A stretch of 64,000 nucleotides of DNA from positions 186,001 to 250,000 of the forward strand of contig NZ_JAFKOK010000001.1 in the NCBI RefSeq assembly GCF_017303295.1. Direction: 5' to 3'. Of the stretch, positions 9,947 through 35,045 are shown in pieces; the first letter of the stretch is position 1; each line of letters starts with the position of its first letter. A program made the translations under genes and the position numbers. The notes beneath the pieces are model-generated. The model was not told the DNA's origin and ran no database searches. It saw nothing but the letters and a program-made list of their open reading frames with translations. This DNA comes from Rhodobacter sp. NTK016B (lineage in GTDB: Bacteria; Pseudomonadota; Alphaproteobacteria; Rhodobacterales; Rhodobacteraceae).

Positions 9947-10249
9947 TCAGAGCGTAGCGTCGTCCATGAGTTCGACAACCACAAGGTCGCGCACCGAGGC
10001 GCCGCGGGCATGATCCAGCGCCGCCTGGTACGCCGCTGAACGGTAGCAGGTTTCCGCCGCTTCCAGCGAGGGGAAGACCGCCACGACATGACGGGCGCGG
10101 TCGGCGCCTTCGAGCGTCACGTAGCGCGCGGCGCGGGCGATGAATTTGCCGCCATGCTCGGCGATGGCCGGGCCCGCGCCCTCGGCATAGCGGGCATAGG
10201 CGTCGGCATCGGTTACCTCGACATGGGCGATCCACAGGGCCTTGGGCAT
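9947..10249 (-). CDS. DUF1330 family protein
   Basis: 100 residues of alpha/beta ferredoxin-like (dimeric barrel) type: AKALWIAHVEVTDADAYARY-like start, GGKFIARAAR, VVAVFPSLEAAETCYRSAAYQAAL. The second ATG (10249) is preferred because GGAGG lies 9 nt away; the ATG at 10255 overlaps the alaS stop. Function unknown; related proteins are stress- or metabolism-linked. A second DUF1330 gene is at 16450. Confidence 0.85.
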   Translation of the reverse strand: MPKALWIAHVEVTDADAYARYAEGAGPAIAEHGGKFIARAARYVTLEGADRARHVVAVFPSLEAAETCYRSAAYQAALDHARGASVRDLVVVELMDDATL

Positions 10250-10251
10250 GA

Positions 10252-12903
10252 TCATTGTCCTCCGATCACAGTTTCGGCGGCGGCGATGGCTTTCTCGGCG
10301 CCCGCGATATCGGCGCCGCCGCCCTGGGCCATGGCCGGACGGCCGCCGCCGCCCTTTCCGCCCAGTTCCACGACCGCCGCCTTGAGGATATCGACCGCCG
10401 ACAGCGTGCCGGTCAGGTCATCCGTCACCCCCGCCGCGACCGCCGGTTTCGCGCCGGTATCGGCGATCAACAGAACGGCGCCCGATCCCAGCTTATCCTT
10501 CAGCGCGTCGACCATGGCGGGCAATTCCTTGCCCGACACGCCCGAGACCACCTGCGCGATGAATTTCACACCGGCGATCTCTTTGGCTTCGGCCCCGCCA
10601 CCGCTGCCGCCGCCCATCGCGAGATCGCGTTTGAGCTGCGCGACTTCGTTGGCCAGCGCGCGGCGTTCCTCGGCCAGCGCCTTTACGCGGTCGACCACAT
10701 CAGCCATCGGCGTTTTGAGAAGCTGCGCGACTTCACCCAGACGCGCGTCCTGCGCGCGCAGATGGGCCAGTGCCGGGGCGCCGGTCAGCGCCTCTATCCG
10801 GCGCACGCCGGCGGATGAGGCCGAATCGCCCAGCAGGACGAAAGCGCCGATATCGCCGGTGCGTTTCACATGCGTCCCACCGCAGAGTTCGAGCGAATAG
10901 GTATGGCCGTCGGTCCCCTTGCCGCTGTCGAGCAGCTGGCCCATCGACACGACCCGGACCTCGTCGCCGTATTTCTCGCCAAACAGCGCCTGCGCGCCAA
11001 GGCCACGGGCGTCGTCGGGGGTCATAATGCGGGTTTCCACCGCGCCGTTCTGGCGGATGAAGGCGTTCACCTCGGCCTCGACGCTGGCGATTTCCGTCGG
11101 TTCCAGCGCCTTGGTATGGCTGAAATCGAAGCGCAGCCGGTCGGGCGCATTAAGCGAGCCGCGTTGCGCGACATGGTCGCCCAGCGCGCGGCGCAGCGCT
11201 TCGTGCAGCAGGTGGGTGGCCGAGTGGTTGGCGCGGATCGCGGTTCGGCGGGTGTGGTCAACTTCCAGCTTGACCGCCATTCCGCGCGTCAGCGTGCCGT
11301 CGATCACCTTGGCCTGATGGATGAAGACGCCTTCGACCTTCTTGGTGTCACGCACCTCGGCCTCGCCGCCATCCCAGCGGATCCAGCCGCTATCGCCGAC
11401 CTGACCGCCGGATTCGGCGTAGAAGGGTGTCTGGTTCACCACGATCGCGACTTCGCCCGAGGCGCTGTCGACCATGGTTTCGCCTTCGACCAACGCCATG
11501 ACCTGCGCCTCGGCGCTTTCGGTGTCATAGCCGAGGAATTCGGTACCGCCGTGCTTTTCGGCCACGTCGAACCACACCGCCTGGCTGGCCGCGTCGCCCG
11601 AACCCGACCACGCCGCGCGCGCCTTGGCCTTTTGTTCGGCCATCGCCGCCTCGAAGCCCGCGATATCGACATTGCGGGTCTTTTCGCGCAGCGCGTCCTG
11701 TGTCAGGTCGAGCGGGAAGCCGTAGGTGTCATAAAGCTTGAACGCCGCTTCGCCCGGAAGATCGGCGTCTTCGGGCAGCTTTTCCAGCTCGGCATCGAGC
11801 AGTTTCAGCCCGCGATCCAGCGTCGTGCGGAAGCGGGTTTCTTCCAGCTTCAGCGTCTCGGTGATCAGCGCCTCGGCGGTGCGCAGCTCGGTATAGTGAC
11901 CACCCATCGCCCGCACCAGCGCCGGAACCAGCTTGTACATGACGGGGTCCTGCGCGCCCAGCATATGGGCATGGCGCATGGCGCGGCGCATGATCCGGCG
12001 CAGCACGTAACCGCGCCCTTCATTCGAGGGCATGACGCCATCGGCCATCAGGAACGAGGTCGAGCGCAGGTGGTCCGCGATGACGCGGTGATGGGTCTTG
12101 CCCGGCCCGTCGGGGGCGCCGTCGGTCAGGTTGGCCGAGGCCTCGATCAGCCCGCGCATCAGGTCGGTGTCGTAATTGTCGTGTTTGCCCTGCAAGAGCG
12201 CGCCGATCCGCTCAAGTCCCATGCCGGTGTCGATCGACTGCATGTCGAGCGGGCGCATCGAGCCGTCCTCGAACTGCTCGTTTTGCATGAACACGACGTT
12301 CCAGATCTCGATGAAACGGTCGCCGTCCTCATCCGCCGATCCCGGCGGGCCGCCCCAGATATGGTCGCCGTGATCGTAGAAGATCTCGGTGCAGGGGCCA
12401 CAGGGACCGGTCGGGCCCATGCGCCAGAAATTGTCATCGGTGCCGATGCGGATGATCCGGTCTTCGGGCACGCCGACCTTTTTCCATATTTCGAAGGCTT
12501 CCTCGTCGGTATGGTAGACCGTGGTCAGCAGGCGCTCTTTCGAGATGCCGAAATCCTTGGTCAGCAATTCCCACGCAAACGGGATCGCTTCGGTCTTGAA
12601 GTAATCGCCGAAGCTGAAATTCCCGAGCATCTCGAAGAAGGTATGGTGCCGTGCGGTGTAGCCGACATTGTCGAGATCGTTGTGCTTGCCGCCGGCGCGG
12701 ACGCATTTCTGGCTAGTCGTGGCGCGGTTGTAGTCGCGGTGTTCAAGGCCGGTGAAGACGTTCTTGAACTGCACCATGCCCGAATTCACGAACATCAGCG
12801 TCGGGTCGTTGCGCGGCACGAGGGGCGAGCTGTCCACCACGGCATGGCCCTGGCGGCGGAAATAATCGAGGAAGGTCGAGCGGATATCGTTGAGGCTTGC
12901 CAT
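10252..12903 (-). CDS. alaS: Alanyl-tRNA synthetase
   Basis: 883 residues, full length. N-terminal [37 protein letters not shown], the class II core with [31 protein letters not shown] (written here as two adjoining blocks of the motif), editing-domain [12 protein letters not shown] and [15 protein letters not shown] zinc motif, and the C-terminal [17 protein letters not shown]1 glycine motif. Charges tRNA-Ala and clears mischarged Ser/Gly. Confidence 0.97.
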
Positions 12904-30670: not shown

Positions 30671-31059
30671 GAAGGCGCCGTCCGAGAACGGAAATCACGC
30701 CCGGTCGCGCTGCCCAAGCTGAACGCGTTCCGGTCAATGTACGGACCCGGACTATCCAAGCACGCAGCCCCCTGCCCCGTAGCCAGCCCTACGGCCAGCG
30801 CTATCAGTGACAACATCAGGCGTTGCCATCGAGGCCATGGCCGGGAATGCGCCGGCGGTCTCCGGAACGCGCAATAGCCTTCGGGAACCAAGCGAAACGC
30901 CAAACAACGCTTGAAACACGCGCACCTGACGACGCATAAATCCTACCGCACCAATCGACACAGAAACGGAGAACCGACGGCAGATGCGGATTGGATGAGC
31001 GGCATAGCTCTGCAGTAATCGGGATCTTTTCAGCACCAAATCACTTGCCTGGGAATTTT
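30671..31059. other. Gene-free region upstream of the HExxH operon
   Basis: Should contain the promoter of the HExxH-adenylation-carrier operon, but no strong -35/-10 pair stands out. A minus-strand ORF with a short hydrophobic run overlaps the regulator and is not credible. Confidence 0.4.
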
Positions 31060-32061
31060 ATGGAACGCCACGTTGCAGCCACCTTGCTGCCGAATGCCGA
31101 AGACCTTCGGGAAACGATAAGCCGGTTAATCTCTCGATTGGAAACCTCATTGCGCCACCTGCTGCTTGAGGTTTGGGACGATAAAGAAAACAAAGTTCGG
31201 GCCGAGGAAAAGCTGGAGCATATCTTTGCCAGTAGCGGGCTCCCTGACAGCTTTGTTTTCGCCGCGCATGACGCCATCCTGAACGCCGCTTTGTCACAGG
31301 ATGAACCGGGGTTTGAACGGGCTTGCTTGCTGTTCCTTCAACTCCCGGATCAGGCGCCGAAAGCCGGTCTGCGGGTACTCGGCCTGTCGGATGACGCCCT
31401 GTCACCTGCGGCCTGCGAAGTCCTCCGCCGCGCCTATCGCGATGACGCCGGACTTACGGACGATCTGGTGGCACCCGGTTCCGGGCAGACAGACCAAGCG
31501 AACAGCATGATCAACCGGGCGAGAGAGATCATGCAGGACTTCGCCCCCGACTGGGCCAGAGAATTCGATCTCCTCGTGTCGCGGATCTATCTGGCCGCGA
31601 ACCGGGACCCCAAAAAGAGCGGCTTCGGGGGGGCCACGGTCTTTGCCGCTTTCGGATCCATTCTATTGAACGCCGACAAGATCGACGGGCTGCCCTCAAC
31701 TTTGATGACGCTGGTTCACGAAAGCTCGCATGCGAAGCTGTTCCTCTATCACCTCGATGACCCCGTCATCTTGAATGAGGATAACGAGTTGTACGCCTCT
31801 CCCCTGCGGTCGACGCCGCGCCCGATGGAGGGGATTTTCCATGCGGCGTGGGTCTCGGCGCGCATGGTGCAAGCCGCGCGGTGTCTTCTCGACAGCGGCT
31901 ATAGCGGCCCCGGGGCCGACGAACTGCGCCGCCGGAGCCGTCAAGCCGCGATCGTCTATCGCGATTGCGCCACGGAAATTCAGCGCCATGCGCGTTTGAC
32001 GCCGCTGGGACAACAGCTGTTCGATGATGCGCAAACGGTGATGTCCGATGTACCCAGCTAA
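31060..32061 (+). CDS. HExxH-motif peptide/amino-acid beta-hydroxylase family protein
   Basis: 333 residues from ATG 31060. Key motif LVHESSHAKLF puts H220, E221 and H224 in place, followed by ELYASPLRSTPRPMEGIFHAAWVSAR with H261 (given here as two blocks, ELYASPLR and RPMEGIFHAAW). This SPxR-xxPRPxxGxFH pattern is that of the mod_HExxH family found in ribosomal-peptide clusters, members of which act as 2-oxoglutarate/iron-dependent beta-hydroxylases rather than metalloproteases. The N-terminal ~190 residues are helical. The gene overlaps the next one by 14 bp, forming a coupled operon with an adenylation enzyme and a carrier protein. Confidence 0.8.
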   Translation: MERHVAATLLPNAEDLRETISRLISRLETSLRHLLLEVWDDKENKVRAEEKLEHIFASSGLPDSFVFAAHDAILNAALSQDEPGFERACLLFLQLPDQAPKAGLRVLGLSDDALSPAACEVLRRAYRDDAGLTDDLVAPGSGQTDQANSMINRAREIMQDFAPDWAREFDLLVSRIYLAANRDPKKSGFGGATVFAAFGSILLNADKIDGLPSTLMTLVHESSHAKLFLYHLDDPVILNEDNELYASPLRSTPRPMEGIFHAAWVSARMVQAARCLLDSGYSGPGADELRRRSRQAAIVYRDCATEIQRHARLTPLGQQLFDDAQTVMSDVPS

Positions 32062-33493
32062 CACCATCGGCGCGGCCTTTCTGAAAAAGGCCGCAGCGGC
32101 CCCCGACGCCATCCTTTTTGAAACCGGGGCCGAGACCGTCACCTATTCGGACTTCAGCGCGCGTCTGGGCACGCTGCGGGCCGCCTTCGCAGACCTCGGC
32201 GTTGCCGCAGATCAGGTCGTGGGTCTGGCGAATACCAACCAAATCGACACGTTCGCCGCGATCTTCGCGCTCTGGGCCTTGGGGGCATCGCCCCTGGTGC
32301 TCGATTTCAGAAGCCCCCTTTCGGAGATTCATGAACGGGCCACGCGCGCGGGCGCCAGCTCTGTCTTTTCGGACTTCAGGACGCTGGCGCAACACGACGG
32401 GGTACAGAGCTTCCCGCGCGACGCCACTGCGCCTGAGATGCCGCGAATGCGACCCGTAGCGCCCGCGTCGCACGGCCCCGCTGATTTCATCATGAGCTCG
32501 GGCACCACCGGGGTTCCAAAGCTGTACCCGTCATCGCATGAAGACCTGCTCACCGCGATTGAGCGGATGGCCCGGCGCGGGGAACGCGGCGACTGGGGAA
32601 ACGCGGTTTCGTGCCTCAATCTCAGTTTTCCGGGAACGCGCTTTATCTGGTATCGCAACGCGATCAGCGGGCGGAAGATCATCACCGTCCCGGTGTTTTT
32701 CAGCTATGCCGAGCTTGATGCCGCGCTTTTGCATGAAGATGCGGAAGAAGTTACCCTTCCGCCGGTCCTGATCCGCGGACTGACCCAGCACATCACGTCG
32801 CAGGGACTGGCCGGCACTGGTCCTCGCTATCATCGGCTGGTGAAAATGCAGTGCATCGGCGGTCCCTTGCTTGGCCCGGCGCTGACCGAAGCCAAGGCGA
32901 TTTTGTCGGCCAAGCTCTGCGTTACCTATTCCTCGACCCAAACGGGCATCATTTCCCGCCTTGAGGGGGACGCGATTGACAGCCATCCGCACTCGGTCGG
33001 GAAACCGCTTCCCCATCATCAGGTCAGCATTGTCGATGACGACGGCCTTCCGCTGCCGATCAATGCGGTCGGCCATATCGTCACGCAGGTTGGTGACAAC
33101 ACCGCGCAACCCGGCGACCGCGGCTATCTCGATGACGAGGGCTATCTGTGTGTTGTTGGAAGAGTTCAGGAATACCTGTGCCGGAATGGCGTGTCCTTCA
33201 ACGCGCCCGACTTGGAGGACCGGATCCAGAAGATCACAGGCGCCGCGCTTTGTTGCGTGATCGCAGCCCCAAGCACAGTCGATGACGAAGACGAGATCAT
33301 TGCCGTCATCGAAGCCGACCCAAGCCGCCTTTCGGACTTCAAAACCCGGTTAAGAGCACAATTGTCACCGCTGACAAGGCCGGACAAGATCGCCCTCCTG
33401 CAGGCCATCCCGAAAACGTCGGGTCTCAAGGTCGCAAGGGCGCAACTGGGTCGATTGGTCGAAACCACTCAGGAGTTGTGCCATGCCCTCTGA
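32048..33493 (+). CDS. Stand-alone AMP-binding (adenylation) enzyme
   Basis: 481 residues, ANL superfamily. The P-loop DFIMSSGTTGVPKLY is at 147-160, YSSTQTG the A5-type motif, GDRGYLDDEGYLCVVGR the A7/A8 region and PKTSGLKVARAQL the A10 lysine. It has no fused carrier or condensation domain. It should activate a carboxylate as acyl-AMP and load it on the carrier protein encoded next; a 10-code prediction was not attempted. Start overlaps the hydroxylase gene, end overlaps the carrier gene by 11 bp. Confidence 0.88.
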   Translation: MYPANTIGAAFLKKAAAAPDAILFETGAETVTYSDFSARLGTLRAAFADLGVAADQVVGLANTNQIDTFAAIFALWALGASPLVLDFRSPLSEIHERATRAGASSVFSDFRTLAQHDGVQSFPRDATAPEMPRMRPVAPASHGPADFIMSSGTTGVPKLYPSSHEDLLTAIERMARRGERGDWGNAVSCLNLSFPGTRFIWYRNAISGRKIITVPVFFSYAELDAALLHEDAEEVTLPPVLIRGLTQHITSQGLAGTGPRYHRLVKMQCIGGPLLGPALTEAKAILSAKLCVTYSSTQTGIISRLEGDAIDSHPHSVGKPLPHHQVSIVDDDGLPLPINAVGHIVTQVGDNTAQPGDRGYLDDEGYLCVVGRVQEYLCRNGVSFNAPDLEDRIQKITGAALCCVIAAPSTVDDEDEIIAVIEADPSRLSDFKTRLRAQLSPLTRPDKIALLQAIPKTSGLKVARAQLGRLVETTQELCHAL

Positions 33494-33719
33494 GCTGAGC
33501 CTATGCGTCGAAAGCGCCTTCAAAACCTGCTTTCCCGATGCCGAGCTGTCGCAGGACAGTGATTTCTTCGACCTCGGTGGGGATTCCCTGAAAGCCGTTG
33601 AGCTTTGCAGCCTGATCGGGCGGCTTATCCACGCCGAAGTTCATCCGTCCCTTCTGTTTTCCCATGCGACCCCGGCAGAGATCACTGAAGCTCTTCGGCG
33701 CGAATACGGGTTCCAATAA
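33483..33719 (+). CDS. Acyl/peptidyl carrier protein
   Basis: 78 residues. DSDFFDLGGDSLKAVELCSL has the 4'-phosphopantetheine attachment Ser35; the IGRLIHAEVHPSLLFSHATPAEI C-terminal helix pattern fits a PCP-type domain. It is encoded directly after the adenylation enzyme and converges on the thioesterase gene, overlapping its 3' end by 38 bp. Confidence 0.92.
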   Translation: MPSELSLCVESAFKTCFPDAELSQDSDFFDLGGDSLKAVELCSLIGRLIHAEVHPSLLFSHATPAEITEALRREYGFQ

Positions 33720-34353
33720 CGCTCTCGATGTTGGCGATCAGGTAGGGGATATTCTCCGGCTTGAAGTACTTTCCGTGACCACAGGGCAAACTGGCTTTCC
33801 GATAAGCGGGAAACAGCTTCGCGACCCGTTCATGGGTCACGGAGAAATCGCTCAGGAACGGATTGCGCTCCGGTGCCTCTGCGCCGAAATTGAGCAAAGC
33901 AGGCACGGGTATTGCACAATCGGGGATGGTATCAATAGCGGCCACGGATTTTATCGTGTGGCCAAGCTCCAACAGGCGTTTTGCGCAGTGGAATGCATAC
34001 GGTGCCCCTTGGCAATTCCCACCGACAAGCGCGATCTCCTCAGGAAGAAGGTCCGTCAGCGCCTCCGCCATCTGCCGCGCCATTTCGGCCCCGACGTCAT
34101 CGCGCTCGGGTGTCGGCTTCATGATGAGGTTGAGAGAGCGGAGCGCGACAAACGGCTGCTCCGGGCTAAGGGCGGCATGAAAATTCAGAGGTTCCTGCTC
34201 TGCGTTGAAGAACCACAGGATCGGCGGTAGCGGTCCGGCCGAATTCAGCAGTCTTGCAGCCCCATGCGGCCCGATGGCCCTGCCCGGCCAGTTCTTGGTC
34301 AAACGCGCGACCGAACGCAGCACATGACCAATTTCCGTGCCTTGGGTCGTCAT
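33682..34353 (-). CDS. Thioesterase-family alpha/beta hydrolase with Cys nucleophile
   Basis: 223 residues. ILWFFNAEQE and LVGGNCQGAPYAFHCAKRLLELG give a nucleophile elbow with Cys114 in place of Ser; IDTIP (Asp141) and CGHGKYF (His193) complete a plausible triad. This matches the thioesterase domains of non-ribosomal and polyketide systems. It converges with the hydroxylase-adenylation-carrier operon, so release or editing of the carrier-bound product is the likely role. Lower confidence in the start; no strong binding site is seen. Confidence 0.8.
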   Translation of the reverse strand: MTTQGTEIGHVLRSVARLTKNWPGRAIGPHGAARLLNSAGPLPPILWFFNAEQEPLNFHAALSPEQPFVALRSLNLIMKPTPERDDVGAEMARQMAEALTDLLPEEIALVGGNCQGAPYAFHCAKRLLELGHTIKSVAAIDTIPDCAIPVPALLNFGAEAPERNPFLSDFSVTHERVAKLFPAYRKASLPCGHGKYFKPENIPYLIANIESVIGTRIRAEELQ

Positions 34354-34403
34354 AGGGTTACGAGCTCTTGCGTAATTCAGGGACTATGTGCCCAACAGGC
34401 CAA

Positions 34404-34436
34404 CGGCCCGCCAAGTTGCGGGCCGCTTTTCTTTTC
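34404..34436 (+). terminator. Hairpin between the thioesterase and the small peptide gene
   Basis: CGGCCCGC (34404-34411), loop CAAGTT, GCGGGCCG (34418-34425), then CTTTTCTTTT on the plus strand. It can terminate the plus-strand operon; on the minus strand it would be an internal hairpin without T tract between the peptide gene and the thioesterase gene. Confidence 0.75.
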
Positions 34437-34464
34437 ACAATCGGAATTATCGTTCCGGCAACGC

Positions 34465-34563
34465 TCAGAAACCGCTTCCCGGAGAAGACGGCTCACCGAC
34501 TTTCGGAGCCGCAGCGGCTTTGCCGCCCTTCAATGTCAGGATTTTCTTGAGATCCAAGTTCAT
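34465..34563 (-). CDS. 32-residue peptide gene, candidate precursor or effector of the HExxH/carrier locus
   Basis: Too short for usual gene calling. The minus strand has AAGGGGAG 5 nt before an ATG, then 32 codons and TGA. The peptide starts MNLDLKKILTLKGGK, goes through an Ala-rich middle (AAAAPKVG) and ends GEPSSPGSGF. An amphipathic leader-like N-terminus and a Ser/Pro/Gly-rich tail resemble a small ribosomal-peptide precursor. It is 111 bp upstream of the Cys-thioesterase on the same strand. No homologue can be named; being a leftover or chance ORF remains possible. Confidence 0.55.
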   Translation of the reverse strand: MNLDLKKILTLKGGKAAAAPKVGEPSSPGSGF

Positions 34564-34569
34564 CACATC

Positions 34570-35045
34570 TCCCCTTCTGGATAAGTTTGATCACAAGATT
34601 ACATTTCGCCCCTCGGTGCAAGGGGCGCGGGAAATTCGTTTCACCTCGTCTTTTCAACGAGGTATGGGGGTGCTTGGGCAGCGCGGTCGTGTATCGGCGC
34701 CGGGACGGGTGTCATTCGGTCGCCCGGCCAACAGCCGCCATCTGCGCTTTGCGGACCTCAGTGGAGCGCGCGCAGCGCTGCTGACGGAAGGCCGCCCAAA
34801 CACCTGCCGCACAAGGAATCAACTGGCGCAAAGACCCAAGCCAGCGGCGATGACGTCAACAGGCTGGCCATGACCTGCTGCTCGACCTGCACCGTCAAGC
34901 GGATGGCCCAGAGCAGGTCAATCATCCTCGAACGTGACCTCAATCGGTCATACGCATAAAGCACGTTACGCGGATGCTAGCTGTCGCCGAGCCAGAGTCC
35001 ATGCGTCCCAACCGGAGTTCCTGCGTTGCGTTCGCGCCCGGTGGT
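34570..35045. other. Gene-free region
   Basis: Between the small peptide and the PhnA-like gene. Upstream of the peptide, TTGCAC and TAATCT are on the minus strand but spaced 14 bp, a weak promoter. The rest has no recognised feature. Confidence 0.35.

What the first reader, a model, noticed from the sequence alone, without database searches (positions are those of the whole stretch)
31060..34563. Compact HExxH hydroxylase / adenylation / carrier / Cys-thioesterase locus with a tiny peptide gene
Three overlapping genes (HExxH-family, AMP-binding, carrier protein) converge on a thioesterase and a 32-codon ORF. HExxH-family enzymes are known from ribosomal-peptide clusters, whereas adenylation, carrier and thioesterase proteins belong to non-ribosomal chemistry. 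The mixture suggests either beta-hydroxylation of a carrier-bound amino acid or attachment of an activated acid to a small ribosomal peptide. I know of no described pathway with exactly this set.
Basis: partly seen in the sequence, partly recalled or inferred. Interest (0 to 1): 0.85.

Follow-up and report, generated by a model that had tools for sequence, protein, structure and literature searches.

The report
Hybrid peptide-acylation cassette in marine bacteria
Five genes in this bacterium form a compact, recurring cassette that probably oxidises a tiny ribosome-made peptide and then attaches an acid to it through a carrier protein, a pathway for which our searches found no published description.

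Summary
The five genes are an aKG-HExxH oxygenase, an adenylation enzyme, a carrier, a Cys-thioesterase-like enzyme and a 32-residue peptide. The set occurs in 17 distinct loci; A, T and TE are in 17 of 17 and the peptide in 16 of 17 (the other contig is cut). An 18th locus has A-T-TE fused. Of 33 other HExxH loci examined, 19 sit beside one of two ATP-grasp-type ligases (12 and 7) and have no carrier or TE; 14 show neither. Peptides found beside 13 of those 19 share the leader (LDxxKLL) and mostly the K-x-G core. So HExxH most likely acts on the peptide, and A-T-TE takes the place of an ATP-grasp ligase. The A enzymes lack the Asp that binds an alpha-amino group (17 of 17), against hydroxylation of a carrier-bound amino acid. 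Best reading: a carrier-loaded acid is moved by the Cys enzyme onto the peptide, most likely onto the Lys of K-x-G. The acid, acceptor and product are unknown; no structure could be predicted.

The parts
31060..32061 (+). alphaKG-HExxH-type oxygenase (333 aa); H220, E221, H224 and downstream R250, R254, H261 invariant in 24 of 24 aligned relatives
   Evidence: TIGR04267, 7e-23; A4; PDB 8s5f ChlH, 1.3e-12 with the profile
32048..33493 (+). stand-alone adenylation enzyme (481 aa); catalytic Lys kept, alpha-amino-binding Asp position is Pro
   Evidence: PF00501; A6; alignment to LgrA
33483..33719 (+). stand-alone carrier protein (78 aa), GGDS attachment site
   Evidence: PF00550; A5: GGDS in 17 of 17
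33682..34353 (-). alpha/beta-hydrolase thioesterase-like enzyme (223 aa) with Cys in place of Ser (GNCQG) and invariant His; probable acyltransferase; convergent with and overlapping the carrier gene by 38 bases
   Evidence: PF00975 below cut-off; A3: Cys and His in 16 of 16 rows; Cys also in fused L069
34404..34425 (.). GC-rich hairpin between the peptide gene and the thioesterase gene; also predicted in L016 and L017; possible partial stop or RNA processing site that favours the peptide transcript (inference)
   Evidence: (z -1.78, -2.35, -1.70)
34465..34563 (-). 32-residue precursor peptide; leader MxLDxxKxLxLK, core AAAAPKVGEP
34569..34575 (-). ribosome-binding-site-like AGGGGAG before the peptide start codon
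   Evidence: upstream sequence

Best explanation
The cassette makes a ribosomally encoded, post-translationally modified peptide (RiPP) with a carrier-protein acylation step. The short peptide binds the HExxH enzyme through its leader (LDxxKLL), and the enzyme oxidises a residue at or next to the K-x-G core. The adenylation enzyme activates a carboxylic acid that is probably not an alpha-amino acid and loads it on the carrier. The Cys enzyme takes the acyl group from the carrier and passes it to the peptide, most likely to the side-chain amine of the Lys of K-x-G, or else to the hydroxyl made by the HExxH enzyme. A-T-TE thus does the conjugation that ATP-grasp ligases do in related clusters. 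Shown by sequence: the conserved set, the conserved peptide, the alternative modules, the Cys, the missing Asp. Inferred: every reaction, their order, and the acceptor.
For: A, T and TE in 17 of 17 loci, peptide in 16 of 17, the missing one on a cut contig. L069 has A-T-TE as one 841-aa protein overlapping HExxH. In a survey of 295 family genomes the four thioesterase hits above 250 bits all lie in the cassette. Other HExxH relatives sit by a ~330-aa ATP-grasp-like ligase (12 loci) or a cyanophycin-synthetase-like one (7 loci), with no carrier or TE; neither ligase was found in the 19 A-T-TE sequences searched. On a 43-row HExxH tree the A-T-TE rows are one group: 1 change, SH-aLRT 81 with L069, 99 without. 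Peptides share leader and core: K-x-G in 20 of 23 A-T-TE peptides, 14 of 16 of the ATP-grasp set, 4 of 4 of the CphA set; EP in 19 of 23, 0 of 16 and 1 of 4. TE Cys in 16 of 16 rows. Precedent for A + T + alpha/beta-hydrolase on a RiPP: NosI/NosJ/NosK (PMC5585349, passages).
Against: No reaction was tested and no structure was obtained. The acid is unknown and no acid-making gene stood out among the clustered neighbours. 15 of 17 A enzymes lack the Glu of the YGxTE motif (its role is recalled), so activity is not certain. In L069 the A domain aligns poorly in its N-terminal half and has an FD that could be the usual Asp. Three A-T-TE peptides have Ser in place of the Gly, and both L031 peptides lack K-x-G. 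14 HExxH loci, three of them on plasmids beside MFS or unnamed genes, show neither A-T-TE nor an ATP-grasp ligase (eight seen with 1.5-kb flanks only), so a ligase is not a constant partner. Conservation of Lys fits acylation of Lys but also recognition by HExxH. The tree is unrooted, so the direction of the module change is not shown.
Confidence: 0.55

Rival explanations
1. NikP1/NikQ-like amino-acid tailoring: A loads an amino acid on the carrier, HExxH beta-hydroxylates it there, and the thioesterase releases it; the peptide is incidental or a later acceptor.
For: Gene order HExxH-A-T with short overlaps and the A-T-hydroxylase-TE logic (recalled). A carrier is in all 17 loci.
Against: The residue aligned to the alpha-amino-binding Asp is Pro, Ser or Gly in 17 of 17. 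19 related HExxH loci have an ATP-grasp-type ligase and no carrier or TE relative in the sequence held (five of the 19 were seen with 1.5-kb flanks only, and L071 has one A-domain hit about 4.5 kb away). Peptides of the same kind were found beside HExxH in both settings.
Confidence: 0.15
2. Oxidation is the main chemistry: HExxH hydroxylates or oxidatively cuts the peptide at K-x-G (as PflC cuts at ARMD), and A-T-TE caps the new end or hydroxyl rather than the Lys amine.
For: PflC/PosC do both hydroxylation and backbone cleavage to an amide (PMC12636437, abstract and passages). K-x-G is shared by peptides of all three cluster types.
Against: Three of 23 A-T-TE peptides lack the Gly. PflC's motif is not K-x-G.
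Confidence: 0.2
3. The peptide is a scaffold, as in pearlins: a small molecule is built on it by A-T-TE and HExxH and then released.
For: Tiny peptides with variable C-termini; no protein cluster that looks like a leader protease was shared by three or more loci.
Against: No lantibiotic-dehydratase-like ligase (PEARL) stood out among the clustered neighbours (not searched with a PEARL profile). The conserved site lies inside the peptide, not at the C-terminus.
Confidence: 0.07

Closest known systems
NosI/NosJ/NosK of nosiheptide (and LclJ/LclI/LclK of lactocillin)
   Same: Free-standing adenylating enzyme, carrier protein and alpha/beta-hydrolase that bring an acid into a ribosomal peptide (PMC5585349, passages).
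   Different: Here the set is five genes without thiopeptide enzymes, the hydrolase-like enzyme carries Cys, the peptide is about 30 residues with a K-x-G core, and an HExxH oxygenase is the partner. Homology to NosI/J/K was not tested.
alphaKG-HExxH RiPP oxygenases (ChlH, BipH/BpmH, PflC/PosC, PesO)
   Same: TIGR04267 domain above cut-off; HExxH and downstream Arg/His motif shared with ChlH.
   Different: Partners described there include radical SAM, MNIO, GNAT and asparagine-synthetase-like enzymes (PMC12636437, PMC13060819, PMC12707348, passages); here A-T-TE or, in relatives, ATP-grasp-type ligases.
CmaE/SyrC aminoacyl shuttles
   Same: Enzymes that move an acyl group from a carrier (PMC8748450, passages); the Cys nucleophile is recalled.
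   Different: They act between two carriers; here there is one carrier gene and a ribosomal peptide is the likely acceptor.
NikP1/NikQ/NikP2 amino-acid beta-hydroxylation (recalled)
   Same: A, T, oxygenase and thioesterase activities together.
   Different: No alpha-amino-binding Asp in A, an HExxH oxygenase, and a conserved ribosomal peptide.

Membership tests
alphaKG-HExxH peptide hydroxylase family (TIGR04267) | Score above the curated family cut-off | tested here: met
   81.4 bits against 40; L015, L026, L069, L074 also above
alphaKG-HExxH peptide hydroxylase family (TIGR04267) | HExxH plus downstream SPxR...RP..G..H motif shared with ChlH | tested here: met
   H, E, H, R, R, H invariant in 24 of 24 rows; aligned to 8s5f
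alphaKG-HExxH peptide hydroxylase family (TIGR04267) | Iron- and 2-oxoglutarate-dependent oxidation of a peptide | not testable with these tools
   needs enzyme assay
RiPP biosynthetic cluster | Short conserved precursor gene beside the modifying enzymes | tested here: met
   peptide in 16 of 17 loci; 17th contig cut
RiPP biosynthetic cluster | Recognisable leader and core | tested here: met
   LDxxKLL-type leader and K-x-G core shared with ATP-grasp type clusters
RiPP biosynthetic cluster | Leader protease or exporter in the cluster | tested here: inconclusive
   clustering of ORFs >= 70 aa in the window stretch and 25 loci (up to 9 kb flanks): no protease-like cluster in three or more loci; ABC-ATPase-like ORFs occur in the flanks of 8 of 17 loci at scattered distances; the flanks were not scanned with profiles
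RiPP biosynthetic cluster | Peptide is modified by the enzymes | not testable with these tools
   needs mass spectrometry
NosI/NosJ/NosK-type carrier-mediated acylation | Free-standing A, carrier and alpha/beta-hydrolase with a RiPP precursor | tested here: met
NosI/NosJ/NosK-type carrier-mediated acylation | Sequence homology to NosI/J/K | not tested
   sequences not obtained
NikP1/NikQ-type hydroxylation of carrier-bound amino acid | A domain with the alpha-amino-binding Asp | tested here: not met
   Pro, Ser or Gly in 17 of 17; unclear in fused L069
Cys acyltransferases (CmaE/SyrC) | Cys nucleophile in the alpha/beta-hydrolase elbow | tested here: met
   16 of 16 rows of A3 (L020 cut, not included), also L069
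Cys acyltransferases (CmaE/SyrC) | Transfer between two carrier domains | not testable with these tools
   one carrier gene found per locus

The most novel reading that the evidence does not exclude
A new RiPP family in which tiny K-x-G peptides are oxidised by an HExxH enzyme and then conjugated on lysine, and in which the conjugating module differs between lineages: two kinds of ATP-grasp-type ligase in some, and in one clade of roseobacters and relatives a carrier-protein module (A, T, Cys acyltransferase) known from non-ribosomal chemistry.
Probability: 0.42. Interest if true: 0.82.

Novelty: new variant of a known kind. Interest (0 to 1): 0.68.

Why it matters
It would join ribosomal and carrier-protein chemistry in about 3.5 kb and give a natural experiment: one kind of oxygenase and one kind of peptide core paired with three different activation modules. 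That would make it directly testable how a carrier-bound acyl group is moved onto a ribosomal peptide, a step that was not seen in vitro for NosK with its precursor (PMC5585349, passage). The window peptide had no Pfam or NCBIfam hit, 10 relatives had no NCBIfam hit, and three scanned members of the ~330-aa ATP-grasp-like family had no hit in either library, so automatic annotation may miss such clusters.

Tried and rejected
Rejected: the peptide as a chance ORF (codon-position pattern and conservation). Rejected: unrelated adjacent operons. Disfavoured: carrier-bound amino-acid hydroxylation. Alignment A2 used a wrong frame for the L009 thioesterase and was discarded; A3 replaced it. One search failed on a frame error and was repeated. 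HExxH A1 in viral contigs: no relative. P0002 in plasmids: no match at 1e-25; P0001: three distant HExxH hits on plasmids with other neighbours, in which one search found no A, carrier, TE or ATP-grasp relative. The thioesterase profile had no PDB match at 1e-8. Looking for the window's flanking genes in the same-genus genome G222 gave only weak AraC relatives and a 65% PhnA match on another contig, so no empty site was found. No Rfam match. Literature: searches listed no paper that describes this set, as far as the listings show; the library is open-access only. Morishita et al. 2024 (ChlBH) and the journal version of the PflC paper were not held.
Full report
Observation. HExxH 31060-32061 (+), adenylation 32048-33493 (+) and carrier 33483-33719 (+) overlap by 14 and 11 bases; a thioesterase-like gene (33682-34353, -) runs into the carrier gene with a 38-base overlap; a 32-codon ORF lies at 34465-34563 (-). 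Family searches gave TIGR04267 for the first (81.4 bits, cut-off 40), PF00501, PF00550, and a PF00975 match below its cut-off. The small ORF matched no family in Pfam or NCBIfam.

It is one unit. BLASTN (limit 1e-8) of the window against the locus of an uncultured Pseudophaeobacter (L016) gives a single match, 31055-34563 at 74%; against Pseudophaeobacter flagellatus (L017) a single match, 30890-34593 at 74%. The match ends about where the five genes end, and the rest of the two loci (about 9 kb before and 6 kb after) does not align, so the cassette sits in different genomic contexts. In the small ORF the differences between window and L016 fall 4, 2 and 13 on the three codon positions, and a ribosome-binding-like site precedes it in all three.

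Distribution. A scan of genome contigs with a three-row HExxH alignment returned 24 loci. 15 of these 24 (L016-L029, L036), plus G200 (L015) and the window, have HExxH, A, carrier and thioesterase together: 17 distinct loci. L014/L022 and L019/L079 are loci seen twice and counted once. In L020 the contig ends inside the thioesterase gene. A and TE are in 17 of 17, the carrier with GGDS in 17 of 17, and a peptide of the family in 16 of 17. Seven of the loci (L018, L019, L021, L022, L023, L024, L036) gave no row to the peptide profile; their best E-values run from 2.6e-13 to 4.1e-5. The named records are Roseobacteraceae or Paracoccaceae; G200 shares the window's family code. In surveys of the window's family, 12 of 295 genomes had an HExxH relative at 1e-12 (14 places) and 10 of 295 a thioesterase relative; the four thioesterase hits above 250 bits are all in cassettes, and the weaker ones are the fused L069 protein, large ORFs of 1006-1328 aa, or other settings. 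An adenylation homologue at 1e-40 was in 3 of 248. By the coordinates, genes converge and overlap at their 3' ends by 4 to 110 bases in 13 of 17 loci (carrier/TE in 11, A/TE in L026 and L027); in four (L015, L028, L029, L036) all genes run the same way. The peptide lies on the TE strand in the window, L016, L017, L026 and L027 and on the other strand in L018, L019 and L021-L025.

The key comparison. HExxH relatives outside the cassette were examined: nine more loci, three plasmid loci, and others from surveys of family, class (8 of 385 genomes, the window's included) and phylum (9 of 398, the window's included). One, L069, has HExxH overlapping a single protein of 841 aa with PF00501, PF00550 and PF00975 domains and VCQG at the thioesterase elbow. 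Of the other 33, 12 have a ~330-aa protein with an ATP-grasp-like end motif (EINTNP) and a weak profile match to D-Ala-D-Ala ligases (6.9e-5), three scanned members of which had no Pfam or NCBIfam hit. 7 have a cyanophycin-synthetase-like protein: L032 and L039 match NF010623 at 2.5e-44 and 2.5e-68, below its curated cut-off, and L030, L033, L078, L083 and L089 match a profile of those two at 135 to 507 bits; L083, the weakest, is hardly better than cyanophycin-synthetase-like genes elsewhere in L039 and L078. In these 19 there was no carrier or TE relative; L071 has one A-domain hit about 4.5 kb off. Five of the 19 were seen with 1.5-kb flanks only. 14 loci have neither module in the sequence held: 8 with 1.5-kb flanks, L037, L038 and L076, and the three plasmid loci beside MFS or unnamed genes. 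Neither ATP-grasp type was found in 19 A-T-TE sequences (18 distinct, as L079 repeats L019). On an HExxH tree of 43 rows (quick method; several long rows flagged) the A-T-TE rows form one group (1 change; SH-aLRT 81 with L069, 99 without), while the two ATP-grasp types need 3 changes each; the root is only a midpoint, so the direction of change is not shown.

Peptides. Peptides were found beside 9 of 12 loci of the ~330-aa type (not L072, L073, L090), 4 of 7 of the CphA type (not L030, L033, L083), and in L069 and L076. They share a leader like LDxxKLL, and most a K-x-G core. Counts after the leader: A-T-TE set 20 of 23 peptides with K-x-G, 24 motifs (shuffles: mean 8.2, highest 19); ATP-grasp set 14 of 16 peptides, 40 motifs (mean 13.4, highest 25, though up to 15 peptides carried a motif in a shuffle); CphA set 4 of 4, 4 motifs (mean 1.9, highest 6, so not beyond chance). 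The two without in the ATP-grasp set are both from L031. EP occurs in 19 of 23, 0 of 16 and 1 of 4. The A-T-TE set was partly found with a K-[VIL]-[GN] pattern, so its own count is not independent; the others were sought mostly by leader alone. Because HExxH is the only enzyme shared by the three cluster types, a core shared by them most likely serves HExxH. The Lys of the core is present in all 23 A-T-TE peptides; the Gly is Ser in 3.

Enzyme details. The thioesterase elbow is G-x-C in 16 of 16 aligned rows, with an invariant His, so it should form a Cys acyl-enzyme, as transferases of the CmaE/SyrC kind do (Cys recalled; shuttle role from PMC8748450 passages). In the adenylation enzymes the residue aligned to the alpha-amino-binding Asp of LgrA is Pro, Ser or Gly in 17 of 17, while the catalytic Lys is invariant (roles recalled). 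This points to a substrate that is not an ordinary alpha-amino acid. Against full confidence, 15 of 17 lack the Glu of YGxTE, and in L069 the N-terminal half aligns too poorly to read, with an FD that may be the usual Asp. HExxH keeps the motif residues shared with ChlH.

Mechanism. Most likely: leader binding, oxidation at or beside K-x-G by HExxH, loading of an acid on the carrier by A, capture by the Cys enzyme, and transfer to the peptide, probably to the Lys amine. The nosiheptide NosI/NosJ/NosK module shows that such a module can serve a ribosomal peptide, although transfer to the precursor was not seen in vitro there (PMC5585349, passages). Known HExxH enzymes hydroxylate His, Asp, Phe, Gln or Pro (PMC13060819, passages) or cut the backbone (PMC12636437, abstract and passages), so the exact oxidation here is open. 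My estimates: HExxH acts on the peptide 0.8; A-T-TE acylates the peptide 0.6; Lys is the acceptor 0.45.

Limits. No structure could be predicted (server busy at every try). Nothing is known of the acid, the final product, its release or its role. Flanks were compared by clustering, not scanned with profiles; ABC-ATPase-like ORFs occur in the flanks of 8 of 17 loci at scattered distances, so export is open. The literature library is open-access only.

Noticed in passing
L080 (G000:C13, 11500-26500), 7022-8059: The window's genome has a second close relative of the Cys thioesterase (GGNCQG, 197 bits), followed by a 750-aa ORF with a P450 match, a carrier-like hit in a separate frame (10093-10746, E 7e-5), and what looks by eye like a carbamoyltransferase gene.
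   Followed up: partly
L074, 6753-11115: One HExxH gene with six precursor-like ORFs in tandem and two ORFs matching the ~330-aa ATP-grasp-like family; the same genome (G065) has three HExxH loci: one A-T-TE cassette, this one, and L076 with a peptide but no ligase seen.
   Followed up: partly
L031, L034, L070 (= L035), L071-L075, L077, L082, L090, L091: A ~330-aa ATP-grasp-like protein family; the three members scanned (L031, L070, L074) had no Pfam or NCBIfam hit.
   Followed up: partly
L018:12991-13647, L021, L023, L024: A 2OG-Fe(II) oxygenase-like gene (PF13640 in L018; relatives in the other three) lies beside the peptide gene in four of the A-T-TE loci, a possible second oxidation step.
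   Followed up: partly
L075:7658-8014 and L034:8572-8715: Precursor-like peptides with repeated K-x-G cores (for example AKTGSKVTSPLLG repeats).
   Followed up: no
window 34404-34425 and the same place in L016 and L017: A GC-rich hairpin between peptide gene and thioesterase gene, predicted in all three loci (shuffle z -1.70 to -2.35, so only modestly beyond chance).
   Followed up: partly
13 of 17 A-T-TE loci, e.g. window 33682-33719: Carrier (or A) and thioesterase genes overlap tail to tail by 4 to 110 bases, although most of these thioesterases are only about 25-32% identical to the window's.
   Followed up: no
L011, L012, L013 (Xenorhabdus and Pantoea plasmids): Distant HExxH relatives beside MFS transporter genes or unnamed genes, without A, carrier, TE or ATP-grasp relatives; a different setting of the same enzyme family.
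   Followed up: partly
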